Of a stretch of 43,732 bases of DNA, positions 22,187 to 43,732 are shown in pieces. Each line of letters opens with the position of its first letter. Positions within the stretch are counted from its first letter, which is position 1. This stretch comes from Burkholderiaceae bacterium (GTDB taxonomy: Bacteria; Pseudomonadota; Gammaproteobacteria; Burkholderiales; Burkholderiaceae_E), in contig JAHBZV010000026.1 of assembly GCA_019635275.1 (NCBI GenBank), positions 1 to 43,732 on the forward strand, in the 5' to 3' direction. The notes beneath the pieces were generated by a model, which was given only the letters and a program-made list of their open reading frames with translations, was not told the DNA's origin and searched no databases. Both the position numbers and the translations under genes were made by a program.

Positions 22187-22867
22187 TTGGTTCCTTCGCT
22201 CGAACCGGTCGATCGCCCTGTCGCCCTTGGCGAGCAGGTCTACGACACCTTGCGCGCCCACCTGCGCGACGGCGCGATCAAGGCCGGACAGCCACTGCAG
22301 GAAGTCCAGCTGGCAACGCAACTGGGGGTCTCGCGGACGCCGGTGCGCGAGGCGCTGGCGCGCCTGGCCAGCGAAGGCCTGCTGGTCTCGGGCGGGCGCA
22401 GCTACATGGTGCCCGAGCTCACGCTGGCCGACGTCGACGACATCTACGAGGTGCGCTTCCTGATCGAGCCGGCGGCGACCCGCCGCGTGGCCCAGCGCAC
22501 CGCCGACCCCGCGGTGCGCGCGCCGATCGAGGCGGCGCTCGCCGAAGCCCGCGCGGCGCACCGCGCCGGCGACGCCGAGGCCTTCCGCGAAAGCCACGTG
22601 CACTTCCGCAGCGCCTGGCTGTCGCTGGTGCCGAACCGGCGGCTGGTCAAGGTGATCGAGCAGTACGCCGACCACATGCAACGCATCCGCGCGCTGACGC
22701 TGGACGACCCGGCCATCCGCGCCATCGTGCTCGAGGGCTTCGAGCACGTGACCGAGGCGCTTCGCGCCGGCGACGGCGACGCGGCCGCCGCGGCGATGCA
22801 CGCCCATCTCGTCGAGGCCAAGCGCGCGTTCGTCACCGCGGTCGGCCTCGACAAGGCCGCGGACTGA
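22187..22867 (+). CDS. GntR-family transcriptional regulator, FCD (FadR) subfamily
   Basis: Predicted 226 residues. The N-terminal winged helix-turn-helix has LGVSRTPVREALARLASEGL (46-65), the GntR recognition helix pattern. The C-terminal FCD ligand domain starts near 81 (ADVDDIYEVRFLIEPAA) and carries histidines in ESHVHFRSAW and FEHVTEAL that usually bind a metal and a carboxylate ligand. TTG 22187 is preferred because GGAGG at 22176-22180 is well placed; no ATG or GTG with a ribosome site is nearby. It is the first gene of the long catabolic operon and is likely its repressor, sensing an acid or acyl intermediate. Confidence 0.88.
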   Translation: MVPSLEPVDRPVALGEQVYDTLRAHLRDGAIKAGQPLQEVQLATQLGVSRTPVREALARLASEGLLVSGGRSYMVPELTLADVDDIYEVRFLIEPAATRRVAQRTADPAVRAPIEAALAEARAAHRAGDAEAFRESHVHFRSAWLSLVPNRRLVKVIEQYADHMQRIRALTLDDPAIRAIVLEGFEHVTEALRAGDGDAAAAAMHAHLVEAKRAFVTAVGLDKAAD

Positions 22868-22887
22868 CCCCCGAAACAGGAGCCACC

Positions 22888-24093
22888 ATGCGCTACAAGG
22901 CCCGGATCCCCTACGGCGCGTACTGGAGCACGCCGTTCACGCGCTGGCAGGGCAGCTTCGCCAACCTGAACAGCATCGAGTTCGCCGCGCACGTCGCGCG
23001 CGCCGAACTCGCGAAGCGCCGCATCGATCCGAAGACGCTCGACTACGGCGTGCTCGGGATCTCGGTGCCGCAGAAGCACTCGTTCTACGGGCTGCCCTGG
23101 CTCACCGGGATGATCGGCGCCGGCCACGTCGGCGGCCCGACGATGATGCAGGCCTGCGCCACCGGCGTGCGCACGCTGCTGGCCGCCGCGCAGGAGATCG
23201 AGGTCGGCATGGCCAGCGTGGCGCTGGCGATCAACTGCGACCGCACCTCCAACGGCCCGCACCTGTACTACCCGAACCCGCGCGGCCCCGGCGGCACCGG
23301 CGCCGCCGAAGACTGGGTGATGGACAACTTCAACTGCGACCCGCTCGGCCCGCACGCGATGCTGGTCACCGCCGAGAACGTCGCGAAGAAGCACGGCATC
23401 GCCACTGCCGCGCAGCACGAAGTGGTGCTGCGCCGAGAGGAGCAGTACCGCGACGCGCTGGCCGACGGTGCCGCGTTCCTGAAGCGCTTCATGACGCTGC
23501 CGTTCGACGTGCCGGCGCCGAACTACCGCAAGAGCGCCGGCACGCTCGAAGCCGACGAAGGCGTGTCGCGCTCGACGCCCGAGGGACTGGCCCGGCTCGA
23601 GCCGGTCGCCAAGGGCGGCACGATCACCTATGGCGGCCAGACCCATCCGGCCGACGGCAACGCGGCGATCATCGTCACCACCGCCGAGCGCGCGCGCGAA
23701 CTCTCCACCGACCCGAAGATCGCGGTGCGCCTGCATGGCTTCGGGCTGGCGCGCGCCGCACTGGCGCACATGCCCGAAGCGACGGTGCCGGCCGCGCAGC
23801 GCGCGCTCGAGCAGGCCGGGCGCTCGATCGCGCAGATGTCGGCGATCAAGACGCACAACCCGTTCGCGGTGAACGACCTGTATTTCGCGAAGGAAACCGG
23901 CGCCGACCTGCGGACGATGAACAACTACGGCTGCTCGCTGGTCTGGGGGCACCCGCAGGCGCCGATGGGCACGCGCGCGATCATCGAGCTGATCGAGGAG
24001 CTGGCGATCCGCGGCGGCGGCTACGGGCTGTTCACCGGCTGCGCCGCCGGCGACACCTCGATGGCCGTGGTCATCGAAGTCGGCGACGAGTAG
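22888..24093 (+). CDS. Thiolase-family acyltransferase
   Basis: Predicted 401 residues. Catalytic residues of the degradative thiolase type are kept: Cys90 in MQACATG, the Asn in HNPFAVND (about 324, in place of the usual NEAFA), His355 in VWGHPQAPMG, and Cys385 in FTGCAAGD. Spacing fits Cys89/His348/Cys378 of known thiolases. The surrounding sequence is divergent, so chain length and specificity are not predictable. AGGAG precedes ATG 22888. It would release acetyl-CoA (or propionyl-CoA) from a 3-oxoacyl-CoA at the end of the pathway. Confidence 0.87.
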   Translation: MRYKARIPYGAYWSTPFTRWQGSFANLNSIEFAAHVARAELAKRRIDPKTLDYGVLGISVPQKHSFYGLPWLTGMIGAGHVGGPTMMQACATGVRTLLAAAQEIEVGMASVALAINCDRTSNGPHLYYPNPRGPGGTGAAEDWVMDNFNCDPLGPHAMLVTAENVAKKHGIATAAQHEVVLRREEQYRDALADGAAFLKRFMTLPFDVPAPNYRKSAGTLEADEGVSRSTPEGLARLEPVAKGGTITYGGQTHPADGNAAIIVTTAERARELSTDPKIAVRLHGFGLARAALAHMPEATVPAAQRALEQAGRSIAQMSAIKTHNPFAVNDLYFAKETGADLRTMNNYGCSLVWGHPQAPMGTRAIIELIEELAIRGGGYGLFTGCAAGDTSMAVVIEVGDE

Positions 24094-24118
24094 CCACGGC
24101 GGCCGGCGGAGCGCGACG

Positions 24119-25672
24119 ATGCGGCTGCACGAATGGATCCACCATCACGCCGGGCGGTCGCCCGCGCGGGTGGCCATCCGCTTTCCCGGTCGCGACCTCG
24201 ACTATGCGGCGTTGGCGCAGCTGGTCGACCGCTACGCGGCGGCGCTGGCAGCCGCCGGGGTCGGGCGCGGCGGCTGCGTCGCCTTCCTCGGGCTGAACAG
24301 CCCCGACGAGATCGCGCTGCTGTTCGCCTGCGCGAGGCGCCAGGCGATGCTCGTGCCGCTGAACTGGCGCCTCGCGGCGCCCGAGCACCGGCAGATCCTC
24401 GCCGACTGCCCGCCATCGGTGCTGTTCGTCGAGCCGCCGTTCATCGGGCACGCCGGGACGTTGCGCGCGTCGCTAGGCAACACCACCGAGGTGGTCGCGC
24501 TCGGCGAGGCCCCGCGTGGCTGGCTCAGTGGCGACGAGTTCCTCTCGCGTGCCCGCGGCGCGGACGCGGGCGGCTCGCGGCGCGCCTCCGAAGCCGCCGT
24601 CGACGTCGACCCCCGGGCGCCGCTGCTCGTCTGCTACACGTCGGGGTCGACCGGCAAGCCCAAGGGCGTCGTGCTCACGCAGGACGCGCTCGCGTGGAAC
24701 GCGCTGAACAGCGCGGCGATGCACGACCTGACCGGGGACGACCGCGTCCTCACCACGCTGCCGCTGTTCCACGTGGGCGGGCTGAACAACCAGACGACGC
24801 CGGCGCTGAGCGTGGGCTGCACGGTCGTGCTGCATCCGAAGTTCGACGTCGAGGCGACCTTCGACGCGATCGAGCGCGAGCGCATCACCCTCACCGTGCT
24901 GGTGCCGGCGCAGCTCGACGCGATGCTCGCCCACCCGCGCTGGCCCTCGGCCGACTTCTCCAGCCTGCGGATGATCACCACCGGCTCGATGATCGTTCCC
25001 GAACGGCTGATCCGCGCGGTGCACGCCCGCGGCGTGCCGCTGGTGCAGGTCTACGGCGCCACCGAGACCTGTCCGATCGCGGCCTGCCAGCGGGCGCAGG
25101 ACGCCTTCCGCAAGCCCGGCTCGGCCGGCCGGGCGGCCGCGCACTGCGAGCTGCGCATCGTCGACGAGGCCGGCCGCGACGTCGCGCAGGGCGCCACCGG
25201 CGAGATCCTCGTGCGCGGGCCGAACCTGATGACCGGCTACTGGAACGCGCCGAAGGCCACCGACGCGGTGCTGATCAACGGCTGGTTCCACACCGGCGAC
25301 ATGGGCCACCAGGATGCCGACGGGTTCCTCTACGTCGACGGCCGCCGCAAGGAGATGATCATCTCCGGCGGCGAGAACATCTATCCGGCCGAGATCGAGA
25401 ACGTCCTGATGGAGTCGCCCGACATCGCCGAGGCCTCGGTGGTCGGCTGGCCCGACGCGCGCTGGGGCGAGATCGTGGTCGCGGTCGTCGCGCCCGAGCC
25501 GGGCCGACACCTCACGGAGGCCGACGTGATGCGCCTGCTCGAGGGCCGCATCGCGCGCTTCAAGCATCCGAAAAAGGTCGTCTTCATCGACGCACTCCCG
25601 AAGACGGCGCTCGGCAAGGTTCGCCGCGACGAAGTGCGGCGCCTGGTGGCCGGCAACCCCGTCACCGGCTGA
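24119..25672 (+). CDS. Acyl-CoA ligase (class I AMP-forming synthetase)
   Basis: Predicted 517 residues. The AMP-binding P-loop YTSGSTGKPKGVVLTQ is at 173-188, the adenine-binding VYGATETCP follows, then the TGD and hinge motifs HTGDMGHQDADGF and DGRRKEMIISGGENIYP, and the C-terminal catalytic Lys in KTALGKVRR. It makes a CoA thioester from a carboxylic acid with ATP and CoA. The sequence does not reveal the acid. It follows the thiolase by 25 bases and precedes hyuA by 16, so all are cotranscribed. Confidence 0.92.
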   Translation: MRLHEWIHHHAGRSPARVAIRFPGRDLDYAALAQLVDRYAAALAAAGVGRGGCVAFLGLNSPDEIALLFACARRQAMLVPLNWRLAAPEHRQILADCPPSVLFVEPPFIGHAGTLRASLGNTTEVVALGEAPRGWLSGDEFLSRARGADAGGSRRASEAAVDVDPRAPLLVCYTSGSTGKPKGVVLTQDALAWNALNSAAMHDLTGDDRVLTTLPLFHVGGLNNQTTPALSVGCTVVLHPKFDVEATFDAIERERITLTVLVPAQLDAMLAHPRWPSADFSSLRMITTGSMIVPERLIRAVHARGVPLVQVYGATETCPIAACQRAQDAFRKPGSAGRAAAHCELRIVDEAGRDVAQGATGEILVRGPNLMTGYWNAPKATDAVLINGWFHTGDMGHQDADGFLYVDGRRKEMIISGGENIYPAEIENVLMESPDIAEASVVGWPDARWGEIVVAVVAPEPGRHLTEADVMRLLEGRIARFKHPKKVVFIDALPKTALGKVRRDEVRRLVAGNPVTG

Positions 25673-25688: not shown

Positions 25689-27830
25689 ATGACCCTCAAG
25701 ATCGGCATCGACGTAGGCGGCACCTTCACCGACTTCGTCGTCACCCGCGACGGCGCCGAGCCGGCGATCTTCAAGTCGCTGTCGACCCCCGCCGACCCGT
25801 CGATCGCGGTGGTCAACGGGCTGACCGACATCGCGGCGAGCATGGACCCGCCGATGGCGGTCGAGGCGTTCGCGCGGACGATCGACACCATCGTCCACGG
25901 CACCACGGTGACCACCAACGCGACGCTGACGCACACCGGCGCGAAGTGCGGGCTGCTCACCACCCGCGGCGTGCGCGACGCGCTCGAAATGCGCCGCGGC
26001 ATCCGCGAGGAGCAGTACAACAACCGCTACACGAACGTGAAGCCGCTGGTGCCGCGCTACCTGCGCGCCGGCATCGACGGCCGGCTCGACCGCACCGGCA
26101 CCGAGACGGTGCCGCTCGACGTCGAGGGCGTGCGCGAGGCCATCGGGCTGTTCCGGCGCGAGGGCGTGCAGGCCGTGTCGATCTGTTTCATGAACTCGTT
26201 CGCGAATCCGGCGCACGAGCAGGCGGCCGCCGAGATCGTCCGCCGTGAACTTCCGGGCGCGTACCTGTCGGTCTCCACCGACCTGCTGCCGTCGATCCGC
26301 TTCTACGAGCGCGTGAGCACCACCGCGCTGAACTCGTACGTCGGCCCGAAGCTGAACCACTACCTCGACCAGCTGGTCGCGCGCCTGAAGGGGATCGGCT
26401 TCGGCGGGCTGCTGCTGATCATGCAGTCCAACGGCGGCGTGATCTCGCCGCAGCTCGCACGCGAGAAGGCGGCGCTCACGCTGCTGTCGGGTCCGGCCGG
26501 CGGCCCTGGCGCCGGGTTGTTCTACGTGCGCGCGCACGGCACCGACAAGTGCATCACCACCGACATGGGCGGCACCAGCTTCGAGGCCTCGGTGTCGGTC
26601 GGCGCGCCGATGATCAAGAACGACGGCGAGATCGCGCGCCACAAGCTCGCGCTGCCGATGCTCGACATCCACACGATCGGCGCGGGCGGAGGCTCGATCG
26701 GCTGGCTCGACGAAGGCGGCCTGCTGCGGATGGGCCCGCAGAGCGCAGGCGCCGACCCGGGCCCGGCCTGCTACGGCAAGGGCGGCACGCTGCCCACGAC
26801 GACCGACGCCAACGTGGTGCTCGGCTACCTCGACCCCGAGTTCTTCGCCGGCGGGAAGATGAAGCTCGACGTCGGCGCGGCGCGCGCCGCGATCGAGACG
26901 CACATCGCGCGGCCGATGGGCCTGACCGTCGAGGAAGCGGCCGCGGGCATGTACCGGGTCGCGTGCAACAACATGGCGCAGGGCGTGCGCGAGGTCACGA
27001 TCAAGCGCGGCTTCGATCCGCGCGAGTTCCCGATCATCCCGGCCGGCGGCGCCGGCCCGATCCACTCGTGCCTGATCTGCCACGAACTCGAGATCCCGCT
27101 GCAGATCGTGCCGCGAGAGTCCTCCGTGCTGTGCGCGTTCGGCATGCTGATGAGCGAGCTCAAGCACGACTTCGTCCGCACCTTCGTCGCGCGGCTCGAG
27201 TCGCTCGACTGGGCGAAGCTGGGCGAGATCGTCGATGCGATGGTCGCCGACGGCGCCGCGCAGCTGGCCGACGAGCGAATCCCGGAGGCGCGCCGCCGCT
27301 ACGAGGTCAAGTTCGACTGCCGCTACATCCGCCAGTACCACGAGGTGTCCTTCGTCGTGCCGCGCGCGCTGCTCGACGCGCGCGACGCGGCCGGCATCGC
27401 GCGCGCGTTCCACGCCGAGCACAACCGGCTCTACGGCTACTCGCTCGAGCAGGAGAACACGCCGATCGAGATCATCAACGTCCGGGTGCAGGCGGTGGGC
27501 GCGACCGACAAGCCGGCCTACCGCAAGGAAGACTGGACGGGCGCCGACGCGTCGCACGCGCTCAAGGGCCGCCGCAGCGTCTACATCCCCGAGACCCGCG
27601 CCTTCGCCGAAGTGCCGGTCTACGACGGCCACCGGATGCGCTTCGGCAACCGCATCGACGGCCCGGCAATGATCGAACAGGCGACGACCGCGATCTTCGT
27701 CAGCGCCTCGTACGACTGCGTGGTCGACGCGCTGGGCTCGTTCGCCGTCTACCTGAAGGGTCGCGAAGACCTGTGCCGGTCGGCGTTCGGGCCGGCGGCG
27801 AAGGCCGAGCCGGCGACGGTGGCCGCCTGA
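25689..27830 (+). CDS. hyuA: Hydantoinase/oxoprolinase-family subunit A (HyuA/AcxA type)
   Basis: Predicted 713 residues. It has the ASKHA-type ATP-binding elements IDVGGTFTDFVV (about 5-16), ITTDMGGTSFEASV, and IGAGGGSIGW, plus the N-terminal hydantoinase segment with HGTTVTTNATL. Family members form the ATP-hydrolysing subunit of N-methylhydantoinase, 5-oxoprolinase, and acetone or acetophenone carboxylases. Length fits HyuA and also the AcxA subunit (about 717). The partner HyuB follows after 23 bases. Whether it hydrolyses a ring amide or carboxylates a ketone cannot be told from sequence. Confidence 0.92.
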   Translation: MTLKIGIDVGGTFTDFVVTRDGAEPAIFKSLSTPADPSIAVVNGLTDIAASMDPPMAVEAFARTIDTIVHGTTVTTNATLTHTGAKCGLLTTRGVRDALEMRRGIREEQYNNRYTNVKPLVPRYLRAGIDGRLDRTGTETVPLDVEGVREAIGLFRREGVQAVSICFMNSFANPAHEQAAAEIVRRELPGAYLSVSTDLLPSIRFYERVSTTALNSYVGPKLNHYLDQLVARLKGIGFGGLLLIMQSNGGVISPQLAREKAALTLLSGPAGGPGAGLFYVRAHGTDKCITTDMGGTSFEASVSVGAPMIKNDGEIARHKLALPMLDIHTIGAGGGSIGWLDEGGLLRMGPQSAGADPGPACYGKGGTLPTTTDANVVLGYLDPEFFAGGKMKLDVGAARAAIETHIARPMGLTVEEAAAGMYRVACNNMAQGVREVTIKRGFDPREFPIIPAGGAGPIHSCLICHELEIPLQIVPRESSVLCAFGMLMSELKHDFVRTFVARLESLDWAKLGEIVDAMVADGAAQLADERIPEARRRYEVKFDCRYIRQYHEVSFVVPRALLDARDAAGIARAFHAEHNRLYGYSLEQENTPIEIINVRVQAVGATDKPAYRKEDWTGADASHALKGRRSVYIPETRAFAEVPVYDGHRMRFGNRIDGPAMIEQATTAIFVSASYDCVVDALGSFAVYLKGREDLCRSAFGPAAKAEPATVAA

Positions 27831-27853: not shown

Positions 27854-29548
27854 ATGAGCACTGCCGAAGCCGTGAAAATCGACCCGATCCTGCTGTCGGT
27901 CTACGCGCGCACGTTCCGCTCGATCACCGACGAGATGAGCATCTCGATGGAGCAGACGACGCGCTCGCCGATCCTCTGCGAGGCCAAGGACTACGTCACC
28001 GGCCTGTACGACGGCGACGGCAACATGCTCGAGCAGACCGAGAACCTGCCGATCCTGGCGTTCTCGCTGGCGCCGGTGTGCAAGTACATCAAGCAGTACT
28101 TCGGCGACGACCTGCATCCCGGCGACGTCATCTTCCACAACGACGTGTTCAGCCTGGGCAACCAGAACAACGACGTGGCGGTATTCAAGCCGGTGTTCCT
28201 CGGCGACAAGCTGGTCGCCTGGACCGCGGTCAAGGGCCACCAGGCCGACATCGGCGGCAACGTCGCCGGCGGCTACAACCCGAACGCGGTCGAGGTCTGG
28301 CAGGAGGCGCTGCGGATCCCGCCGGTCAAGGTGGTCGAGCGCGGCAAGCTGCGCCGCGACGTCTGGAACCTGATCTTCGCCAACGTGCGGCTCGACATCG
28401 TCCAGCACGACATGAAGGCCGAGATGGGCGCGTGCACGATCGGCGAGCGGCGGATGCTCGAGCTGCTGGCCAAGTACGGCGTCGACAGCTACGAGGCGCA
28501 CAAGCAGGCGCTGTTCTTTGCCACGCGCCGGATGATGGAAGCCGAGATCGCGAAGATCCCGAACGGCCGCTACTCGGGCGAAGGCTACGTCTACTACGAC
28601 GGCCGCCACGAGGGCTCGAAGTTCACGATCCGCGTCGATATCGACGTCGAGGACCGCAGGATCCGCTTCGACTACTCGCGCACCGACCCGCAAACCAACG
28701 GCTTCGTCAACGGCACCTTCACGTCGAGCGCGTCGGCGACGATCCTCACGCTGCTGCAGATGGTCAACCCGGACATCCCGCACAACGAGGGGATGGTGCA
28801 GCCGATCGAGATCGTGATCCCCGAAGGCACGATCCTGAATGCGGCGTACCCCAAGGCGACCACGTTCGGCAACCACCTGTGCCCGCCCAACGCCGACGCG
28901 ATCCAGCGCGCGCTCGCGCCGGTGCTGCCCGACCGCGTCACCGCCGGCTGGAACAACCTGCTCGCGTCGCTCACCACCGGGATCGACCCGCGCACCGGCG
29001 AGAAGTACGTCGACATCGGCTTCATGGGCCTGAAGGGCGGCTCGGGCGGGATGCTCGGCACCGACGGCTACGACCACATCGGCATGATCGACGCGTCGGG
29101 CGGCGTCCTCGACCAGGACTACGAGATGTTCGAGCAGCAGACGCCGCACACGCTCGTGCGCCACGAGTTACTGACCGACTCGGCCGGCGCCGGGCAGTGG
29201 CGCGGCGGCCTGGGCGTCGAGACGATCTTCGAGATCGGCTCGGACGACACACAGCTGGTCACCTTCGGCGACGGCGACTTCGAGCCGGCGTTCGGGCTGT
29301 TCGGTGGCCGCGACGCGGGCCTGAACTTCATCCGGCTGCACTACCCGGACGGCCGCACCGTCGTACCGCGGAACAAGGACCTGATCACCGGCGTGCCGAA
29401 GGGCACCGTCTACCACCAGGTGGCCAGCGGCGGAGGCGGCTACGGCGACCCGAGGAAACGCGACCGCAGGGTGCTCGCCGAGGAGGTGCGCAACGGCGTG
29501 ATCTCGCCCGAAGCGGCGCGCGAGCTGTACGGCATGGACGACGCCTGA
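27854..29548 (+). CDS. hyuB: Hydantoinase B/oxoprolinase-family subunit (HyuB)
   Basis: Predicted 564 residues. Typical segments are PILLSVYARTFRSITDEMS at the start, EQTENLPI, PGDVIFHNDVF, GHQADIGG, FTSSASATIL, and the C-terminal VASGGGGYGDP. HyuB pairs with HyuA as the catalytic subunit. The length fits HyuB; the acetone carboxylase AcxB subunit is about 200 residues longer, and no gamma-type third subunit is present here, which argues for a two-subunit enzyme of the N-methylhydantoinase group. Its substrate is unknown. Confidence 0.9.
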   Translation: MSTAEAVKIDPILLSVYARTFRSITDEMSISMEQTTRSPILCEAKDYVTGLYDGDGNMLEQTENLPILAFSLAPVCKYIKQYFGDDLHPGDVIFHNDVFSLGNQNNDVAVFKPVFLGDKLVAWTAVKGHQADIGGNVAGGYNPNAVEVWQEALRIPPVKVVERGKLRRDVWNLIFANVRLDIVQHDMKAEMGACTIGERRMLELLAKYGVDSYEAHKQALFFATRRMMEAEIAKIPNGRYSGEGYVYYDGRHEGSKFTIRVDIDVEDRRIRFDYSRTDPQTNGFVNGTFTSSASATILTLLQMVNPDIPHNEGMVQPIEIVIPEGTILNAAYPKATTFGNHLCPPNADAIQRALAPVLPDRVTAGWNNLLASLTTGIDPRTGEKYVDIGFMGLKGGSGGMLGTDGYDHIGMIDASGGVLDQDYEMFEQQTPHTLVRHELLTDSAGAGQWRGGLGVETIFEIGSDDTQLVTFGDGDFEPAFGLFGGRDAGLNFIRLHYPDGRTVVPRNKDLITGVPKGTVYHQVASGGGGYGDPRKRDRRVLAEEVRNGVISPEAARELYGMDDA

Positions 29549-30702: not shown

Positions 30703-31127
30703 GTGCCGTTCCGGGGCTCGCGCCGCGACACCCGCAGCAACGCCGGATCAAGGTGCTGCTCGCCAAGCCCGGCCTCGACGGCCACGACCAGGGCGCCAAG
30801 GTCGTCGCGCGCGCGATGATGGACGCGGGATTCGAGGTCATCTACACCGGGCTGCGGCAGACGCCGGAGTCGGTCGCGCGGATGTCGCTCGAGGAGGACG
30901 TCGACGTGATCGCGCTCTCCAGCCTGGCCGGCTCGCACCTGCCGTTCTGTCGCAAGCTGAAGACGCTGCTGGAGGCCAACGGGCTGACCGACAAGCTGTG
31001 GCTGATCGGTGGCAACCTGCCCGCGCAGGACCACGACGAACTGCGCGCGCTGGGCTTTCGCGGCGTGTTTCCCACCGGCTCGAAACTCGACGCCATTTGC
31101 GACTACATCCGGGAGCAGGTGAAATGA
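30699..31127 (+). CDS. B12-binding small subunit of an acyl-CoA mutase
   Basis: Predicted 142 residues, one cobalamin-binding domain. The lower-axial-ligand motif is DGHDQG (27-32, DxHxxG with His29); SSLAGSH and LIGGNLPAQD are further contacts in the Rossmann-like fold. Such separate subunits occur in isobutyryl-CoA, ethylmalonyl-type, 2-hydroxyisobutyryl-CoA and archaeal methylmalonyl-CoA mutases. It overlaps both neighbours by 4 bases (ATGA), so stoichiometric translation with the large subunit is likely. Confidence 0.95.
   Translation: MSAVPGLAPRHPQQRRIKVLLAKPGLDGHDQGAKVVARAMMDAGFEVIYTGLRQTPESVARMSLEEDVDVIALSSLAGSHLPFCRKLKTLLEANGLTDKLWLIGGNLPAQDHDELRALGFRGVFPTGSKLDAICDYIREQVK

Positions 31128-33612: not shown

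Positions 33613-33629
<17 letters not shown>
32748..33629 (+). CDS. Molybdenum hydroxylase FAD-binding medium subunit (CoxM/HcrB-like)
   Basis: Predicted 293 residues. FAD motifs AGGTDLMVQ (about 35-43) and TIGGNVSNASPAGDT mark the xanthine-dehydrogenase-family medium subunit, which passes electrons from the 2Fe-2S subunit to an acceptor. The extra 4Fe-4S insertion of 4-hydroxybenzoyl-CoA reductase HcrB is not visible, so an oxidative hydroxylase is more likely than a reductase. The start is 10 bases after the mutase stop; the end overlaps the next gene by 17 bases. Confidence 0.92.
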
Positions 33630-34112
<483 letters not shown>

Positions 34113-34116
<4 letters not shown>

Positions 34117-36527
34117 ACGTCGTCGAGAAGAAGGCGCTCGTCGAGCGCGACTCGCTGATCGGCAAGCGCATCGCGAAGATGGATGCGCCGGAGAAGGCCA
34201 GCGGCAAGACCCGCTACATCCACGACATCGACCTGCCGGGGCAGCTCTACGGCAAGATCCTGCGCTCGTCGCGCGTGCACGCGCTGATCAAGCGAATCGA
34301 CACGAGCAAGGCGCGCGCGCTGCCCGGCGTTCACGTGGTGATCACCGCCGCCGACGTGCCCGACCAGCGCCCGATCGGGGTCGCGAAGGACCACCTGCCG
34401 CTGAAGACCGACCGGGTCCGCAGCCAGCGCGACGAGATCGCCGCGGTCGCCGCGGTGTCCGAAGAGGTCGCCGAACGCGCGCTGCGCCTGATCGAGGTCG
34501 AGTACGAGGACCTGCCGGTCGTCAGCGACGCGCAGGCCGCGCTCGAGCCCGGCGCGACGCTGATCCACCCCGAGCCGCACGGCGTCGAGCACCACCACCT
34601 GAACCTGAAGAAACCGGGCGCGCCGGTCGCCTTCGCCGGCAAGAAGGACAACGTCGCGATGCGCTTCGACTACGCGCACGGCGACGTGGTGCAGGGCGAA
34701 GCCGAGTCCGACGTGGTCGTCGAGGACACGTTCAAGCTGCACTACGTGACGCACTGCTGCATGGGCGTGTCGGGGATCCTCGCCGAGTTCGACGCCTCGG
34801 GCAACCTGCTGATGTACTCGAACACGCAGGTGCCGTTCCTGCACAAGCGCGAGTTCGCCGAGTACCTGAACATGGACCCGGCGCGCATCCGCATCATCCA
34901 GCCGCCGATCGGCGGAGGCTTCGGCTCCAAGCTCGACATCTACCCGTTCGAGGTCATCTGCGTGTTCCTGGCGCGTGCCGCCAGGCGCCCGGTGAAGATG
35001 GTGTTCAGCCGCGAGGAGGAGTTCATCGCGTCGCCGACCCGCCAGCCGGTGCTGCTCACGCTGCGCTCGGGCTGCCGGAAGGACGGCACCCTCACCTTCC
35101 GGCAGGTGCATACGCTGCACGACAACGGCGCGTACACCTCGTGGGGCGCGACGACGCCGTTCGTGATGATGCAGACCTTCTCGTCGCTGTACCGGGTGCC
35201 GCACTGCGACTACCACACGGTCGCGGTCTACACGAACAACCCGTATGCCGGGTCGTTCCGCGGCTACGGCAACCTGCAGGCCACGTTCGCGGTCGAAGCG
35301 CACATGGACAAGCTGGCCGAGGCGATCGGAATGGACCCGCTCGAGTTCCGGCTGAAGAACGCGCAGGAGCCGGGCGAAGTCACCGGCCAGGGAATGACCT
35401 TCAAGAGCTGCGGCTTTCGCGAGTGCCTGACCACCGCGGCCACGCGCAGCGACTACCAGCGCAAGCACCGCGAGAACCAGGCGAGGCAGAAAGACCCCGA
35501 CCCGATCAAGCGCGGGATCGGCATCGCCTCGATGCTGCACGTCGGCGGCGGCGCGAAGATCTACCCGTCGGACGGCTGCGGGACGATCCTCAAGCTCGAC
35601 GACTTCGCGCACGTGACGCTGATCACCGGCGCCTCCGAGATCGGCCAGGGTTCGGAGACGGTGCTCGCACAGCTCGTCTGCGAGGAGCTCGGGCTGCCGA
35701 TCTCGGCGGTCACGGTGGTCAACAACGACACCGACATCACGCCGTGGGACGTCGGCGTGCACGCGTCGCGCACCACCTTCATCGCCGGCAACTCGGCGAT
35801 CGGCGCCGCACGGAAAGCCAAGGCGAAGATCCTGGCGGCGGCGGCGAAGAAGCACGGCTGCGACGAGAACGAGCTCGACCTGCACGGCGGCCACGTGATC
35901 CGCGTCGACACCGGCGAGCCGCTGGTGGACCTGGCGCGGCTGATGCGCAGCCTGCACTTCTCCGATCGCGCCGAACTGGTGATGACGACCTACTACTACG
36001 AGCCGCCCAGCCAGCACCAGGACAAGGGCTTCAAGGGAGACGTCTCGGCAGCCTACGCGTGGGCGACACAGGTGGTGGAAGTCGAGGTCGACACGCAGAC
36101 CGGCGTCGTGAAGATGACCCGCGTCACCGGCGCGCACGACGTCGGCCGCGTGCTCAACCGCCTCGGCATCGAGGGCCAGATCGAGGGCGGCGTCGTCATG
36201 GGCCAGGGGTATGCGCTCACCGAGAACCTGATGGTCGAGAACGGAGTCGTGCGCAACCCGAACTTCCGCGACTACAAGCTGGTGACCGCGCCCGAGATCC
36301 CCGAGATGGACGTCTCGTTCGTCGAGTCGATGGACGGCGAAGGCCCACAGGGTGCCAAGGGCGTCGGGGAAGCGCCGGCGATCTGCATCGCCGCGGCCAC
36401 CGCCAACGCGATCTACAACGCCACCGGCGTGCGTATCTACGACCTGCCGTTCACGCCCGAGCGCGTCTACCGGGCCCTGAAGGGCAAGGCCGAGAAGCCC
36501 ACGCTGAAGCGCTGGCTGCCGGCATGA
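34113..36527 (+). CDS. Molybdenum hydroxylase catalytic large subunit (xanthine dehydrogenase/HcrA-like)
   Basis: Predicted 804 residues. Molybdopterin-binding and active-site segments include [35 protein letters not shown] and [10 protein letters not shown] with the catalytic Glu at about 753. The [10 protein letters not shown] and [13 protein letters not shown] segments resemble the 4-hydroxybenzoyl-CoA reductase/CO dehydrogenase branch. The CO dehydrogenase active-loop Cys motif (AYRCSFR) is absent. The enzyme would add a water-derived hydroxyl to a ring or acyl-CoA. No signal sequence, so cytoplasmic. Overlaps the CoA-transferase start (ATGA). Confidence 0.93.
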
Positions 36528-37714
36528 AGCGACGTACGGTGCTGTCGATGGAGCAGGCGCTGTCGCTGCCGTCGGCGACGATGCGCTTCGCGCAGCTGGG
36601 CTGGCGCGTGATCCGCATCGAGTCGACGCCGACCGGCGCCGGCCTGCCGGGCGACCCGAACCGCTACATCGGCTCGCGCGTGGCCGACGACGACCGGCGC
36701 AGCTACTTCGTCGCCCCCAACGTCGGCAAGGAGGCGATCGCGCTGAACCTGAAGGACGAGCGCGGCCGCGAGGTACTGCAGCGGCTCGTCCGCGAGCTCG
36801 ACGTCGACGTGTTCTGCTGCAACACGGTGCCCTCGCGCTACCGGGCGCTGGGCATCGACTACGAGACGCTGTCGGCCGTCAAGCCCGACCTGATCTGGGC
36901 CGGCATCTCGGCGATGGGCCCGGCGTACCCGGACGCGCCCGGCTACGACCCGGTCATGCAGGCGATGGCCGGCTACATGGAGGTCACCGGCGACCCGAAC
37001 GGTCCGCCGATGCTCGCCGGGATCCCCGTGATCGACCTGAAGGCCGGCGACGAGGTCTACGCCAACGTGATGGCAGCGCTGCTCGAGCGCCACGAGACCG
37101 GTCGCGGCACGCGGATCGACGTGTCGATGCTGCAGGCGGCCGCGTCGTGGCTGATCACCGTGCTGCCGCTGATCGACTTCGGCTGCCAGCCCGGCGAGAT
37201 CACCCGCGCCGGCAACGAGCACCGCAAGTTCATCCCGACCAACGTCTATCCGACCAGCGACGGGTACGTGTTCCTCGCGATCGGCAGCGACGTGCAATGG
37301 CGGCGGCTCACCGCAATTCCGAAATTCGCCCCGGTGGCCAACGAGGTGCGCGCGACCAACGAGGGGCGCCATCGCGAGCGCGAGTCGATCCACCGCGACA
37401 TGGCCGCGGTGACCTCGCGCTACCCGGCCGACGAGATCCTCGCCGACCTGCGCGCGGCCACGATTCCGGCAACGCGCATCCTGGACATCCGGCAGGTGCG
37501 GGAGCTGCCACAATTGCGCGACAAACTCACGCGGACGACGATGCCCGACGGCCGCGCGATCCATATGCAGCCGATGGCGGTCGACGTGGCCGGCGCCCGC
37601 ACCGAGTTGCCGTTCCCGCCGGGGTACGGCGCGGACACGCAGCGGGTGCTCGGCGAGGCGGGCTACTCGGCCGACGAGGTGCAGGCATTGCGGGGCGCGG
37701 GCGTCGTGGCCTGA
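36524..37714 (+). CDS. Family III CoA-transferase (CaiB/BaiF type)
   Basis: Predicted 396 residues. [20 protein letters not shown] (141-160) and [24 protein letters not shown], with the catalytic Asp171, are the family core; [11 protein letters not shown] follows. The N-terminus ([21 protein letters not shown]) is a variant of the usual GPYATMLLADLGADVIKVE. It would move CoA between an acyl-CoA product and the free acid substrate, an ATP-saving route beside the ligase in the same operon. Confidence 0.92.
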
Positions 37715-37793: not shown

Positions 37794-38873
37794 ATGCGTA
37801 TCGCGGTTCTGGGTGGCGGGCACGGCTGCTACGCTGCGGCGGCCGACCTGTCCGGGCAGGGACACGAGGTCAGGCTCTGGCGGCGCGACGCCGCGGCGCT
37901 CGCGCCGGTCGTCGAATCGCGACACATCGTGCTGCGCGACTTCCGCGGCCGCCGCGAGGTGCCGCTGGCGCTCGCCACCGCCGACATAGGCGCCGCGGTG
38001 CGCGGCGCCGAACTGATCCTGGTGCCCACGCCCGCGTTCTCGCAGCAGGACATCGCGCGCGCGCTCGCACCGCACCTGGCCGACGGGCAGGTCGTGTTCC
38101 TGCCTCCGGGCACCTTCGGCAGCTACGTGATGGCGAGCGCGGTGCGCGCCGCCGGCAACCGCGCCGACGTCGCGTGGGCCGAGACCGGCACCCTGCCCTA
38201 CCTGGCGCGCAAGCACGGGCCCGCCGAGGTCGCCATCACCACCCGCGCGACGCGGCTGCCCACCGGCGTGTTTCCCGCCGCGGCGAGCGAGCGCGCGCGC
38301 GCGGTCATCGCGCGCGCCTACCCGTCGATCGAGCCGGCCGACGACGCGTTGTCGGGCGCGCTGATGAACGCCGGGCCGATCATCCATCCGCCGCTCATCG
38401 TGATGAACGCTGCCCCGCTCGAGCACTTCGAGCGCTGGGACATCCACAACGAAGGCACGCAGCCGTCGGTGCGCAGGGTCACCGACGCGCTGGACGCCGA
38501 GCGGGTCGCGGTGCGCGAGGCGCTGGGCTACGGGGCGCCGCACTTCCCGCTCTCGGATCACTACCACACCGACCGCTGGATGTACGGCAACGCGCACGAC
38601 AAGCTCGTCGACAGCGGCGACTGGCGCGAGCACATCGACCTCGCCTCGCACCGGTACATGCGCGAGGACGTCGCCTACGGCCTCGCGTTCCTCGTGTCCG
38701 TCGCCGACTGGGCCGGCGTGCCCTGCCCGGTGGCCCGCGGGCTGCTCGCGATCGGCGGCGCGATCGTCGGGGACGACCTCTCGCGCGGGCCGCGAACGCT
38801 CGGCGCGCTCGGCCTGGCCGGGCTCGACCGGGCGGCGATGCGCCGGCTGCTCGAACGCGGTTTCGACGCATGA
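37794..38873 (+). CDS. NAD(P)-dependent octopine/nopaline-dehydrogenase-family protein
   Basis: Predicted 359 residues. The N-terminal Rossmann motif is GGGHGCYAAAADL (7-19); the C-terminal octopine-dehydrogenase domain has NAGPIIHPPLIVMNA (192-206) with the catalytic-type His198. Members reduce imines made from keto acids and amino compounds, but many bacterial homologues have unknown roles. AGGAG supports ATG 37794. The stop overlaps the next start (ATGA). In this operon it may oxidise a hydroxyl or amine-bearing intermediate; this is inference. Confidence 0.85.
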   Translation: MRIAVLGGGHGCYAAAADLSGQGHEVRLWRRDAAALAPVVESRHIVLRDFRGRREVPLALATADIGAAVRGAELILVPTPAFSQQDIARALAPHLADGQVVFLPPGTFGSYVMASAVRAAGNRADVAWAETGTLPYLARKHGPAEVAITTRATRLPTGVFPAAASERARAVIARAYPSIEPADDALSGALMNAGPIIHPPLIVMNAAPLEHFERWDIHNEGTQPSVRRVTDALDAERVAVREALGYGAPHFPLSDHYHTDRWMYGNAHDKLVDSGDWREHIDLASHRYMREDVAYGLAFLVSVADWAGVPCPVARGLLAIGGAIVGDDLSRGPRTLGALGLAGLDRAAMRRLLERGFDA

Positions 38874-39868
38874 GCACCGCGGCCGCCGCACGCGAGACCG
38901 TCGCCGCGCTCGGCGCAGGCCGCATGGGCCGCGGCATCGCGACCGCGTTCGCCTACGCGGGCCACGAAGTCTGGCTGGTCGATGCCAAGGCCCGACCGGC
39001 CGGGCAGGCCGATGCGCTCGCGCGCGACGCGCTCTGCGAGATCGACGCGTCGCTCGCCGCGATGGCGCGTTGGGGCGCGTTCGACGACGCGCTGCGCCCG
39101 ACGATCCTGGGCCGCGTGCGCTTCGCGGACCGCGAGGCCGCGCCGGCGGCCCTGTCACACGCCGACGTCGTCTTCGAAGGCGTGCCCGAGGTGCTCGACG
39201 CCAAGCGCGAAGCCTTCGCCTTCGCCGCCCCGCACCTGCGGCCCGACGCCGTGCTCGCGTCGACGACCTCGTCGTTCCTGGTCACCGAGCTGGCCGGCTT
39301 CGCGCCGCGTCCGCAGCGCTTCCTCAACGCGCACTGGCTCAATCCGGCGCACGTGATTCCGCTGGTCGAGCTGAGCGCGCATCCGGGCACGGCACCCGAG
39401 GCGAGCCGGGCGCTGTCGTCGCTGCTCGAGCGCATCGGCAAGGTGCCGGTGACCTGCGCGGCCGCCCCCGGCTACATCGTCCCGCGCCTGCAGTCGCTGA
39501 TCATGAACGAGGCGGCGCGGATGATCGAGCAGGGCGTCGCCAGCGCCGAGGACATCGACCGCGCGACGCGCTTCGGTTTGGGCTTCCGGTTCGCGAACAT
39601 GGGCGTCGTCGAGTTCATCGACTTCGGCGGCAACGACATCCTGTACTACGCGAGCCGCTACCTGTCGCAGGCGCTCGGCGACGAGCGCTACGCGTCGCCG
39701 GCGATCGTCGACCGGCACATGCGCGAAGGCCGCAACGGCCTGCGAGACGGCAAAGGGTTCTACGACTTCGGCGGCGTCGACGTGGCGGCCTACCGCACGC
39801 AGGCGCTGGGGCGGATGCTCGGCATGCTGGCGCACCTGGGCATGCTGCGGCCGCCCGATCCCGGTTAG
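38870..39868 (+). CDS. 3-hydroxyacyl-CoA dehydrogenase family protein
   Basis: Predicted 332 residues. NAD motif GAGRMGRGIA (15-24), STTSSF (131-136), and the catalytic-type HWLNPAHVIPLVE (155-167) are visible; the C-terminal domain begins at PGYIVPRLQSLIMNEA. The conserved Asn of the GFIVNR motif is Pro205 here, and the C-terminal sequence FANMGVVEFIDFGGNDI differs from beta-oxidation enzymes. It may therefore act on a modified hydroxyacyl-CoA or a free hydroxy acid. Coupled by overlap to the opine-dehydrogenase-type gene. Confidence 0.88.
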   Translation: MSTAAAARETVAALGAGRMGRGIATAFAYAGHEVWLVDAKARPAGQADALARDALCEIDASLAAMARWGAFDDALRPTILGRVRFADREAAPAALSHADVVFEGVPEVLDAKREAFAFAAPHLRPDAVLASTTSSFLVTELAGFAPRPQRFLNAHWLNPAHVIPLVELSAHPGTAPEASRALSSLLERIGKVPVTCAAAPGYIVPRLQSLIMNEAARMIEQGVASAEDIDRATRFGLGFRFANMGVVEFIDFGGNDILYYASRYLSQALGDERYASPAIVDRHMREGRNGLRDGKGFYDFGGVDVAAYRTQALGRMLGMLAHLGMLRPPDPG

Positions 39869-39931: not shown

Positions 39932-41071
39932 ATGAAACGACCCCTGTTCGCCGCCCTCGCCATCGCGGGGGTGCTCGCGGCCACGACCGCGCGCGCCGAG
40001 ATCACCGTCGGCGTGTCCCTGGGCACCACCGGCCCGGGCTCTTCGCTCGGCATCCCGTACAAGAACGCCTTCCAGCTGCTGCCGAAAACGCTCGGCGGCG
40101 AGCCGGTGAAGTACATCATCCTCGACGACGAGTCCAAGCCCGACAACGCGGCCAAGAACGCCCGCAAGTTCGTCACCGAGGACAAGGTCGACGCGATCAT
40201 GGGCTCCAACGGCGTGCCGTCGGCGGTCGCCATGACCGCGGTCGCCGCCGAGTCGAAGACGCCGATGATCGCGCTCACCCCGGTACCGCCGCTGGCGCCC
40301 GACCGCCTGCACTGGACCTTCGTCGTGCCGCAGACCACCGAGCTGATGATGAGCGCGGTCGTCGAGCACATGAAGGCGCACGGCGTGAAGACCGTCGGCT
40401 ACATCGGCTTCTCCGACACCTGGGGAGACCTCGTCTACAACGCGATCACCGCGCTCGCGCCCGCGGGCGGCTACAAGGTCGTGACCAACGAGCGCTACGG
40501 GCGCGCCGACACCAGCGTGACCGGCCAGGTGCTCAAGGTCATGGCGGCCAACCCCGACGCGGTCATCGTCGGCGGCTCCGGCTCGCCCGGCGCAACGCCG
40601 CACATCGCGCTCGCAGAGCGCGGCTACAAGGGCCAGATCTACCACAACCACGGCACCGTGAACCTGCCGTTCATCCAGACCGGCAAGAAGGCGGTCGAAG
40701 GCGCGATCGCGCCGACCGGCGCGCTGATCGTTGCCGAGGAGCTGCCCGACAACTTCCCGACCAAGAAGGTCTCGCTCGACTTCGTCAAGCGCTACGAGGC
40801 CGCCTTCGGGCCGGGCAGCCGCAACGCGTTCGCCGGCTACAGCTTCGACGGCGTGCAGCTGCTCGACGCCGCGGTGCCGGTGGCGCTGAAGAAGGCGAAG
40901 CCGGGCACGCCGGAGTTCCGCGAGGCGCTGCGCGACGCGCTCGAGAACGTCCGCAACGTGGTCGGCACGCACGGCGTCTACAACATGAGCGCCGCGAACC
41001 ACAACGGGCTGGACGAGCGGGCGCGCGTGCTGGTGCGCGTCGAGAACGGCGCGTGGCGGCTGCTCAAGTAA
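39932..41071 (+). CDS. Branched-chain-type ABC transporter substrate-binding protein (Peripla_BP_6)
   Basis: Predicted 379 residues. A Sec signal ([22 protein letters not shown]) is cut near residue 22, before [57 protein letters not shown] are typical of the LivK/aromatic-acid binding group. AAGGAG precedes ATG 39932. Adjacent to LivH and LivM-LivG genes, so it feeds that importer. The ligand is presumably the organic acid degraded by the operon. Confidence 0.94.
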
Positions 41072-41090: not shown

Positions 41091-42134
41091 ATGACCGCGG
41101 ACATCGTCCTCTGGCTCGTGCAGGATGGCGTCACCAACGGCGCCATCTACGCGCTTCTGGCGCTCGCACTGCTGCTGGTGTTCGCGGTCACCCGCGTGAT
41201 CTTCGTGCCGCAGGGCGAGTTCATCGCCTATGCGGCACTGTCTCTCGGCCTGCTGCAGACCGGGCAGGTGCCCGGAACGGTCTACGTGCTGGTCGGCGGC
41301 GGGCTGCTCGCCGCCGCGTTCGACATCGCCGTGGCGTTGCGCGAGAAGGCCACGGGACGCCTGCCGCGGATCCTGCTGGTCTACGTCGCGGTGCCGGTCG
41401 CGATGGCCGCGCTCGCGTGGTGGGCGGCGCCGCGCAAGCTCGACATGTGGGCGCAGGTGCTGATCGTGATCGGGCTGGTCGTTCCGCTCGGGCCGATCCT
41501 CTACCGCGTCGCCTACCAGCCGCTGGCCAATGCGTCGGTGCTCGTGCTGTTCATCATCTCGATGGCGGCGCACTACGCGCTGACCGGCCTCGGGCTGGTG
41601 TTCTTCGGCGGCGAAGGCCTGCGCTCGGCCGCGTTCTCGGACGCGAAGTTCCGGCTCGGCGTGCTCGACATCACCGCGCAGAGCGTCTGGGTGGTGTCGG
41701 CCAGCGTCGTCGGCATGATCGCGCTGTGGCTCTTCTTCGAGCGCACGCTCTACGGCAAGGCGCTGCGCGCCACCGCGATCAACCGCGTCGGCGCGCGGCT
41801 GGTCGGCATCCCGACCGAGTTGTCGGGGAGCCTCAGCTTCCTCGTCGCGGCCTTCATCGGCGCGGTGTCGGGCGTGCTGATCGCGCCGATCACGACGATC
41901 TACTACGACACCGGGCTGATGATCGGCCTGAAGGGCTTCGTCGGGGCGATCCTCGGCGGCATGGCGAGCTATCCGCTCGCCGCGGCCGGCGCCGTCGCGG
42001 TCGGGCTGCTCGAGTCCTTCTCGTCGTTCTGGGCCAGCGCGCTGAAGGAATCGATCGTCTTCACGCTGATCATCCCGGTGCTGGTCTGGCGCTCGCTCAC
42101 GTCGCGTCATCACGTCGAGGACGAGGAAGAGTGA
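41091..42134 (+). CDS. livH: Branched-chain-type ABC permease LivH
   Basis: Predicted 347-residue inner-membrane protein, about 50 residues longer than typical LivH because of an added hydrophobic and basic segment (about 75-125, with [19 protein letters not shown]). [19 protein letters not shown] at the start and the cytoplasmic [22 protein letters not shown] segment are hallmarks. The final acidic tail HHVEDEEE is unusual. The stop overlaps the next GTG start (GTGA). Confidence 0.93.
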
Positions 42135-43732
42135 TCCGCACGCACCGCGCGCTCGCGCTGTTCCTCGTCGTCGTCGCGCTCGCGCCGCTCGCGCTGCCGG
42201 CGTTCTACGTCACTTTGCTCAACTACATCGGGCTCGCGACGCTGGTCACGCTCGGGCTCGTGCTGCTCACCGGCGTGGCCGGCGTCGTCTCGTTCGGGCA
42301 GCAGGCCTTCGTCGGGATCGCCGCCTACACGACCGCCGCCGTCACCGTGCTGATGGGCCTGTCGCCGTGGGCCGGCCTCGTCGCCGGGCTGGCGCTGACG
42401 GCCGCGTTCGCGCTGCTGCTCGGCGCGATCACGCTGCGCCTGTCGGGGCACTACCTGTCGATCGTCACGATCGCCTGGGGCATCGCGCTCTACTACCTGT
42501 TCGGCAACCTGCCGGGGCTCGGCCAGTACAGCGGCGTCGACAACGTCCCGGCGGTCTCGCTGGCGGGCTGGACGCTCGACACCGGGCGCGAGTCGTACTA
42601 CCTGATCTGGCTCGCCACCGTCGCCGCGCTGCTCGCGGCGCGCAACCTGCTCGACTCGCGCAGCGGGCGCGCGATCCGCGCGCTGCGCTTCCGCGGCGTG
42701 ATGGCCGAGAGCTTCGGCGTCGACACCGCGGCGCTCAAGCTGCAGGTGTTCCTGTATGCGGCCGTGCTCGCCGCGCTGTCGGGGTGGCTGTACGCGCACT
42801 TCCTGCGCTTCGTGAGCCCGCACGCGTTCGGCGTGAACGCCGGGATCGACTACCTGTTCATGGCGGTGATCGGCGGCGCGAGCCAGGTCTGGGGCGCGCT
42901 GCTCGGCGCGTCGGTGCTGACCGTGCTCAAGGAGTGGCTGAAGGACCTGCTGCCCGCGCTGTTCCAGAAGAGCGGCAACTACGAGATCGTCGTCTTCGGC
43001 GTGCTGATGATGCTGCTGCTGCACCGCACGCGCGACGGCCTGGTGCCGGCGATCGCGCGGCTGCTTCCGGCCGGCGCGCCTCGCCGACGGCCGCCCGACG
43101 CGCCGGCGCTGCCCAGGCGCGCGCAGCCGGTGCGCGGGCAGCCGCTGCTCGAATTGCGCGGCGTGCAGAAGCGCTTCGGCGGCCTGCTCGCGGTCAACGA
43201 GATGTCGTTCGCGATGACGAGCGGCCAGATCCTGGGCCTGATCGGGCCCAACGGCGCCGGCAAGAGCACCCTGTTCAACCTCGTCACCGGCGTCCTCGCA
43301 GCCGACGGCGGCGAGGTCCGCTTCCTCGGCGAGCGCATCGAGCGCGCGACGCAGCGCGACATCGCGCGTCGCGGCGTCGCCCGCACGTTCCAGCACGTGA
43401 ACCTGGTGAGCACGATGTCGGTGATCGAGAACGTGGCGATCGGCGCCCACCTGCGGGGCACCAAGGGCAGCGTCGCCGCGATGCTGCACGCCGACCGGGA
43501 CGAGGAGCGGCGCCTGATGGCCGAGGCCGCGCGCCAACTCGATCGCGTCGGGCTCGGCGACCACCTGTTCGAGCCTGCGGGAAGCCTGCCGCTGGGGCAG
43601 CAGCGCATCGTCGAGATCGCCCGCGCGCTGTGCGCCGACCCGGTGCTGCTGCTGATGGACGAACCGGCCGCCGGCCTGCGCTATGGCGAGAAGCAGGCGC
43701 TGGCCGCGTTGCTGCGCAAGCTGCGCGACGAG
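42131..43732 (+). CDS. Fused LivM permease-LivG ATPase, 3' end outside the window
   Basis: An open frame of 534 codons from GTG 42131 reaches the window edge without a stop. Residues 1-310 are a LivM-type permease ([19 protein letters not shown] near 42-60; [19 protein letters not shown]). A basic/proline-rich linker (about 311-335) joins it to a LivG ATPase: [15 protein letters not shown] from about 337, Walker [10 protein letters not shown] (372-380), Q-loop RTFQHVNLV, signature [15 protein letters not shown], Walker [12 protein letters not shown]. Such fusions are known in Burkholderiales. The LivF partner is expected just downstream. Confidence 0.92.

What the first reader, a model, noticed from the sequence alone, without database searches (positions are those of the whole stretch)
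22187..43732. Possible undescribed organic-acid degradation operon combining B12 mutase, Mo hydroxylase, HyuAB and opine-type dehydrogenase
Seventeen plus-strand genes, many joined by 4-base overlaps, run from a GntR repressor to an importer. Seen directly: ligase, CoA-transferase, acyl-CoA dehydrogenase, mutase, Mo hydroxylase, HyuAB, two NAD(P) dehydrogenases, thiolase and importer. Family knowledge: these activate, oxidise, hydroxylate, rearrange and cleave CoA thioesters. I cannot match the set to a named pathway. Inference: a branched or cyclic acid, perhaps with a ring amide or ketone, is imported, hydroxylated, carboxylated or ring-opened by HyuAB, rearranged by the mutase, and cut to acetyl-CoA.
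Basis: partly seen in the sequence, partly recalled or inferred. Interest (0 to 1): 0.75.

Follow-up and report, generated by a model that had tools for sequence, protein, structure and literature searches.

The report
Auxin-degrading iaa operon, already described
This gene run is a copy of a known bacterial operon that breaks down the plant hormone indoleacetate without needing oxygen; it is not a new pathway, although one enzyme block in it appears to have been swapped in from another lineage.

Summary
The 17-gene run is real, but the pathway is not undescribed. The first 12 genes (22187-37714) match, gene for gene and in order, the iaa operon for anaerobic indoleacetate (auxin) degradation. 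The reference is an Aromatoleum-group chromosome (G103) carrying both published primer sites of the characterised iaaF gene; identities are 67-91%. Features that mark the operon hold: the acyl-CoA dehydrogenase has the IaaF-specific GGG motif, HyuAB has the IaaCE sizes, and the mutase keeps the Tyr/Arg pair of dicarboxylyl-CoA mutases. The same assembly encodes a benzoyl-CoA reductase subunit and the window carries nos genes, fitting a denitrifier.

Two extras. (1) The three-gene Mo-hydroxylase block (32748-36527) exists in two types. The window carries type A inside an operon whose other genes group with type-B relatives, so this cassette was probably exchanged (AU test against one type-B clade, p 7e-8, on 30 of 40 rows). 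(2) The opine-type dehydrogenase, 3-hydroxyacyl-CoA dehydrogenase and importer (37794-43732) look like a separate module, found also in relatives where no close iaa mutase was found; its substrate is unknown.

The parts
22187..22867 (+). GntR/FCD transcriptional regulator (iaa regulator; Q or R letter not determined)
   Evidence: PF00392, PF07729; 69% to the gene at the same place in G103
22888..24093 (+). Thiolase, IaaA by gene order (letter inferred)
   Evidence: PF00108/PF02803; 79% to G103
24119..25672 (+). AMP-forming CoA ligase, IaaB (indoleacetate-CoA ligase)
   Evidence: PF00501; 67% to G103
25689..27830 (+). HyuA-type subunit, IaaC of the predicted 2-oxoindoleacetyl-CoA lactamase
   Evidence: PF01968; 86% to the 707-aa G103 gene
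27854..29548 (+). HyuB-type subunit, IaaE
   Evidence: PF02538; 91% to the 564-aa G103 gene
29569..30702 (+). IaaF, decarboxylating (aminobenzyl)malonyl-CoA dehydrogenase
   Evidence: 86% to the G103 gene bearing both published iaaF primer sites; GGG motif
30699..31127 (+). B12-binding subunit of the mutase (IaaGH)
   Evidence: PF02310, TIGR00640 over cut-off; 88% to G103
31124..32737 (+). Large subunit of the (aminophenyl)succinyl-CoA/(aminobenzyl)malonyl-CoA mutase (IaaGH)
   Evidence: PF01642; 90% to G103; Tyr65 and Arg183 kept in 89 of 89 rows, window included
32748..33629 (+). Mo hydroxylase FAD subunit, type A cassette (I-K lettering inferred from order)
   Evidence: PF00941/PF03450; 73% to G103, about 50% to six type-B relatives of the genus
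33613..34116 (+). Mo hydroxylase 2Fe-2S subunit, type A cassette
   Evidence: PF01799/PF00111; 81% to G103
34113..36527 (+). Mo hydroxylase large subunit, type A cassette
   Evidence: PF02738/PF20256; 85% to G103, 53-55% to six type-B relatives of the genus
36524..37714 (+). CaiB-type CoA-transferase, IaaL (phenylsuccinyl-CoA transferase)
   Evidence: PF02515; 73% to G103
37794..38873 (+). Opine-type NAD(P) dehydrogenase, separate module
   Evidence: PF02317; nearest solved chain 1bg6; orthologues in relatives with no close iaa mutase found
38870..39868 (+). 3-hydroxyacyl-CoA dehydrogenase-type enzyme, paired with the opine-type gene
   Evidence: PF02737/PF00725, NF006125 over cut-off; next to the opine-type gene in 8 of 10 fetched loci
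39932..41071 (+). Periplasmic binding protein of the importer
   Evidence: PF13458; only 42% to the binding protein that follows CaiB in G103
41091..42134 (+). LivH-type permease
   Evidence: PF02653
42131..43732 (+). Fused LivM-LivG permease/ATPase, cut by the contig end
   Evidence: PF02653 plus PF00005

Best explanation
Window 22187-37714 is an iaa operon. Inferred route, following the published Aromatoleum pathway: IaaB makes indoleacetyl-CoA; the Mo hydroxylase oxidises the indole ring to a 2-oxoindole (lactam); IaaCE (HyuAB) opens the lactam with ATP to give (2-aminophenyl)succinyl-CoA; IaaL moves CoA between the two carboxyls; the B12 mutase gives (2-aminobenzyl)malonyl-CoA; IaaF oxidises and decarboxylates it to 2-aminocinnamoyl-CoA; beta-oxidation and the thiolase yield 2-aminobenzoyl-CoA and acetyl-CoA. 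Benzoyl-CoA reductase elsewhere in the genome could handle the rest. Genes 13-17 are an adjoining uptake/oxidation module that may or may not serve the same substrate. Shown here: orthology, synteny and motifs. Shown in the paper I read (PMC8360864), with the Aromatoleum enzyme: the IaaF reaction on benzylmalonyl-CoA. Inferred: every reaction in this organism.
For: Gene-for-gene synteny and 67-91% identity with the G103 locus, which carries both published iaaF primer sites on a 4,296,230-base contig. HyuA 707 and HyuB 564 aa there equal the IaaCE sizes tabulated in PMC8453981 (passage). GGG instead of YEG in the ACAD in 71 of 71 aligned rows, window included; PMC8360864 gives GGG as the mark of IaaF. 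Mutase Tyr65/Arg183 in 89 of 89 rows, whereas the aligned 4r3u chain (2-hydroxyisobutyryl-CoA mutase) has Ile and Gln; that these are the carboxylate-binding positions of methylmalonyl-CoA mutase is recalled. Same order in Aromatoleum toluclasticum L047. BcrB over the family cut-off in the window's genome, over it in 0 of 14 control genomes. MeaB-type hit over cut-off (weak, since 12 of 14 controls ring too). nos-type genes in the window.
Against: No enzyme of this organism was assayed. Two primary papers on the pathway (Ebenau-Jehle 2012; Schuhle 2016) are not held, so gene letters for the thiolase and Mo subunits rest on order. The window's binding protein is only 42% identical to the one in G103. 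No enoyl-CoA hydratase was seen among the window proteins scanned, and the hydratase fusion of relatives has only partial, 27-39% matches in the own assembly (22 matches), so a hydratase from elsewhere would be needed.
Confidence: 0.93

Rival explanations
1. An undescribed pathway for a branched or cyclic acid (pyrrolidone, furoate, branched dicarboxylate).
For: HyuAB is nearest to caprolactamase among NCBIfam models, and Mo hydroxylase plus ligase recalls furoate or nicotinate routes (recalled).
Against: Gene-for-gene match with an assigned pathway and the IaaF-specific GGG motif.
Confidence: 0.03
2. HyuAB is a ketone carboxylase and the ligase/thiolase pair degrades the resulting 3-oxo acid, as in acetophenone degradation.
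For: Same superfamily; ligase and thiolase in the run.
Against: Only two subunits; scores far under the acetophenone carboxylase cut-offs (335 of 1500 for ApcC, 237 of 1250 for ApcA, 102 of 1500 for ApcD); closer to lactamase/hydantoinase chains. PMC5214803 places predicted indoleacetate lactamases in the hydantoinase branch (passage).
Confidence: 0.01
3. Not exclusive with the main reading: the operon also handles indoleacetyl-CoA made from other sources, for example tryptophan via indolepyruvate, with free indoleacetate only one entry point.
For: A fused oxidoreductase of the indolepyruvate:ferredoxin family lies near iaa clusters in 9 distinct loci, one of them the source of the query (family tested for two of them).
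Against: The window's own genome has copies of this family on three other contigs and G069 has a second one, so adjacency is weak evidence; none lies in the window; the 12-gene core is the same as in Aromatoleum.
Confidence: 0.15

Closest known systems
iaa operon of Aromatoleum aromaticum/evansii (anaerobic indoleacetate degradation)
   Same: Twelve genes in the same order, 67-91% identity to G103; IaaF GGG motif; IaaCE subunit sizes.
   Different: An opine-type dehydrogenase, an extra HCDH and a different importer follow here. The divergent HCDH/hydratase fusion gene of G103 is not in the window. G103 has a 199-base gap between HyuA and HyuB, perhaps the place of the truncated iaaD; the window has 23 bases.
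Caprolactamase CapAB / ATP-dependent hydantoinases
   Same: Two-subunit ATP-dependent lactam hydrolase family.
   Different: Below the caprolactamase cut-offs (673 and 389 of 1000 bits).
Aerobic iac and iad auxin loci
   Same: Same substrate.
   Different: PMC9613470 describes the anaerobic iaa genes as highly divergent from these (passage); not compared here by sequence.

Membership tests
iaa operon (anaerobic indoleacetate degradation) | Ligase, HyuAB, ACAD, mutase subunits, Mo hydroxylase, CaiB-type transferase in the iaa order | tested here: met
iaa operon (anaerobic indoleacetate degradation) | ACAD with GGG in place of YEG (IaaF subclass, PMC8360864) | tested here: met
   71 of 71 aligned rows, window included
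iaa operon (anaerobic indoleacetate degradation) | Two-subunit HyuAB of about 707 and 564 aa, closest to IaaCE | tested here: met
   713 and 564 aa in the window; 86% and 91% to the 707/564-aa G103 genes
iaa operon (anaerobic indoleacetate degradation) | Binding protein IaaM and beta-oxidation genes alongside | tested here: inconclusive
   Binding protein only 42% to that of G103; a HCDH but no hydratase seen in the window
iaa operon (anaerobic indoleacetate degradation) | Growth on, or induction by, indoleacetate | not testable with these tools
   Uncultured MAG
Methylmalonyl-CoA mutase proper | Score over the curated MCM cut-off | tested here: not met
   519 of 876 bits for NF006944, though the Tyr/Arg pair is kept
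2-hydroxyisobutyryl-CoA mutase | Ile and Gln at the substrate-binding positions | tested here: not met
   Tyr65 and Arg183 instead
Caprolactamase | Score over the NCBIfam equivalog cut-offs | tested here: not met
   673 and 389 of 1000 bits
Acetophenone/acetone carboxylase | Additional carboxylase subunits and scores over cut-off | tested here: not met
   Two subunits only in the run; 335 of 1500, 237 of 1250 and 102 of 1500 bits
Opine dehydrogenase family (gene 13) | Octopine_DH helical domain | tested here: met
   PF02317, 97.7 against 30 bits; substrate not testable

The most novel reading that the evidence does not exclude
The iaa operon is modular. Its ring-oxidising Mo-hydroxylase block exists as two deeply different, interchangeable cassettes (type A; type B, which in three relatives read is followed by an 83-aa, MoaD-like ORF) that have been swapped whole between the mutase and CoA-transferase genes, in the window's genus and in the Aromatoleum group. 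The two types may differ in substrate or cofactor handling, and the attached opine/HCDH/importer module may widen the range of acids fed into the pathway.
Probability: 0.35. Interest if true: 0.45.

Novelty: new member of a known kind. Interest (0 to 1): 0.22.

Why it matters
It settles the finding: a seemingly unassignable gene set is the anaerobic auxin-degradation operon, here in an uncultured, probably betaproteobacterial genus with a benzoyl-CoA reductase gene and nos-type genes. The cassette exchange gives natural pairs for asking why the ring-oxidising step of this pathway exists in two forms.

Tried and rejected
Rejected on evidence: ketone carboxylation by HyuAB (scores), 2-hydroxyisobutyryl-CoA mutase (residues), and the opine-type dehydrogenase as an iaa enzyme: it occurs in 21 of 101 searched genomes (own included, E 1e-70), among them G002, G011, G020, G024, G030 and G031, which show no mutase match at 1e-150. 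Caution: a missing mutase can mean a gap in the assembly; G010 has no close mutase yet carries a type-B Mo subunit and the opine-type gene on one contig.

Led nowhere: plasmid searches gave no close mutase (314 records, all under 60% identity) and no Mo large subunit at 1e-150. Literature searches returned nothing. Passages of PMC4207700 and PMC6221969 gave nothing on the operon. A first gene-calling attempt by GC position chose wrong frames in places; one search used codon scores trained on the window's own genes. The protein sets made were truncated by an offset error in my script and were rebuilt; the gene counts do not depend on them. A regular-expression test for GGG missed 5 of 63 loci (L067, L076, L089, L091, L122); the alignment, of matches covering at least 85% of the window protein, has GGG in every row.

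One search counts any tblastn hit at 1e-8 inside the locus, so paralogues can count: seven-gene core in 34 of 80 loci, 25 of 35 loci over 20 kb, 15 of 16 loci over 20 kb with mutase identity of 75% or more. The 71 and 89 alignment rows contain near-duplicates (L043=G006, L044=G004, L045=G009, L061=G069). Of 54 genomes with both a mutase and a Mo large subunit, 14 with under 59% identity to either reference were left out of the trees. In the 40-row core tree (quick search), L069 and L073 carry a HyuB about 30% identical to the window's, probably a paralogue, and form a long branch. For the AU test I dropped 10 of the 40 rows (type A L069, L073, L076, L082, L089; type B L066, L067, L075, L077, L081) as long-branched, paralogue-bearing or distant, and I had seen the first tree before.
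Full report
Observation. The 17 genes are there as described, on the plus strand, six of 16 junctions being 4-base overlaps (coordinates; families). The window is a complete contig of an 86.8% complete MAG, and the run stops because the contig ends inside the LivM-LivG gene. The closest named matches to its mutase (98, 95 and 93%) lie in MAGs titled Burkholderiaceae or Burkholderiales.

What the genes are. Pfam and NCBIfam give a GntR/FCD regulator, thiolase, AMP-forming ligase, HyuA, HyuB, acyl-CoA dehydrogenase, B12 small and large mutase subunits, the three subunits of a xanthine-dehydrogenase-family Mo hydroxylase, a CaiB-type CoA-transferase, an opine-type dehydrogenase, a 3-hydroxyacyl-CoA dehydrogenase and a branched-chain-type importer. 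The mutase is nearest among solved structures to 2-hydroxyisobutyryl-CoA mutase (4r3u), but at two positions it has Tyr and Arg where that chain has Ile and Gln (that these are the substrate-binding Tyr89 and Arg207 of methylmalonyl-CoA mutase is recalled). This points to a carboxylate-bearing acyl-CoA.

The identification. A genome scan with the mutase returned the same set in Aromatoleum toluclasticum, 'Candidatus Desulfobacillus denitrificans', Sulfuritalea, Ramlibacter and others. PMC8360864 (text parts 1-5 of 6 read) describes the Aromatoleum aromaticum iaa operon: indoleacetate-CoA ligase IaaB, phenylsuccinyl-CoA transferase IaaL, B12 mutase IaaGH, the binding protein IaaM and the decarboxylating benzylmalonyl-CoA dehydrogenase IaaF. 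[quoted passage not shown] I used the published forward iaaF primer as a pattern in 17 held genomes of the genus of A. toluclasticum: 2 matched, G103 and G105. Against it the window's first 12 genes are syntenic with 69, 79, 67, 86, 91, 86, 88, 90, 73, 81, 85 and 73% identity. PMC8360864 reports GGG in place of YEG as the mark of IaaF; all 71 aligned rows, the window among them, have GGG. The finding is therefore an iaa operon.

Fit with the organism. The window carries NosD and nitrous-oxide-reductase propeller families, and a protein with Fer4_5 and FMN-binding domains that I read as NosR, which fits a denitrifier. The assembly encodes a class I benzoyl-CoA reductase B subunit over its curated cut-off, as do 15 of 18 genomes of the genus, own included, and 0 of 14 controls. 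A MeaB-type hit over cut-off occurs too, but 12 of 14 controls ring for that family, so it says little.

Extra 1: a swapped cassette. Against the same-genus relative G014 the window is 88-96% identical in DNA in the 400-base bins from 27801 to 32600, 68-76% from 32601 to 36600, and 94% in the bin from 36601; against G103 it stays at 78-88% between 33001 and 36600. The break falls on the Mo-hydroxylase genes. Two types exist: in the Mo-subunit tree of 40 rows each type is one side of a branch, whereas the tree of four other operon proteins needs 6 changes of type, 4 forced by well-supported branches (14 more distant rows were left out beforehand). The window and G006 (type A) sit among type-B relatives there, while their Mo subunit groups with Aromatoleum, Sulfuritalea and others. 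Forcing type B into one clade on 30 of the 40 rows is rejected (p-AU 7e-8; dropped rows and the caution about order are in Tried and rejected). In the Aromatoleum group, G103 has type A and G105 type B. None of the 18 genomes of the window's genus shows both types at E 1e-120; 7 of the 18 show no match at all. In G005, G012 and G014 the type-B block is followed by an 83-aa ORF; the one from G014, the only one tested, is MoaD/ThiS-like. In the 8 Mo subunits aligned both types keep a Glu in the C-terminal GxxE motif (its catalytic role is recalled), so type B does not look inactive. Of my paper searches (open-licence papers, capped listings) only one search was aimed at the Mo subunits; no listing spoke of such an exchange. 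The two primary pathway papers were not readable, so I do not claim it is unreported.

Extra 2: the downstream module. Orthologues of the opine-type dehydrogenase occur in 21 of 101 searched genomes, including genomes without a mutase match. Of 24 matches I fetched the surroundings of 10; the HCDH gene is adjacent in 8 (not in L179 and L182). Neighbours are a Liv-type importer (L174, L181) or, in others, TRAP transporter and ring-hydroxylating oxygenase genes (families tested for six proteins from L176 and L178 only; the rest read by eye). It is best seen as an independent organic-acid module that follows the iaa CoA-transferase gene in the window, G006, G012, G014 and G017 and G004. Its nearest solved relative is N-(1-D-carboxyethyl)-L-norvaline dehydrogenase (1bg6); its substrate is unknown.

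Other links. A fused 2-oxoacid oxidoreductase of the indolepyruvate family lies near iaa clusters in 9 distinct loci: 7 of 80 named ones, plus G005 (the source of the query) and G009; L061 is G069 (family tested for G005 and G069). An HCDH/enoyl-CoA hydratase fusion lies near the cluster in G103 and several others. The first suggests, weakly, an entry from tryptophan via indolepyruvate.

Verdict. Known pathway, new member.

Noticed in passing
11983-17635, minus strand: NosD-, NosZ- and NosR-type genes (nitrous oxide reduction). The NosZ- and NosR-type genes also lie next to the iaa operon in G005, G006, G009, G014 and G015.
   Followed up: partly
19939-22020, minus strand: Large AMP-forming ligase with an acetyl-CoA synthetase N-terminus, divergent from the operon and conserved there in five same-genus relatives.
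   Followed up: no
4944-7436: Phosphoketolase (XFP) gene in a likely denitrifier.
   Followed up: no
42131-43732: LivM permease and LivG ATPase fused in one reading frame; G014 shows a fused gene of 587 aa at this place.
   Followed up: partly
L029:1889-5763: A second HyuA/HyuB pair (51% and 59% to the window's) lies upstream of the iaa genes in G029, whose cluster shows no ligase or CaiB match.
   Followed up: no
L026:10001-13588; L032:2972-6433: Fused indolepyruvate-ferredoxin-oxidoreductase-family genes near iaa clusters.
   Followed up: partly
L025 (G005), around 9000-16000: Ligase and acyl-CoA dehydrogenase frames look broken in G005, perhaps sequencing errors.
   Followed up: no
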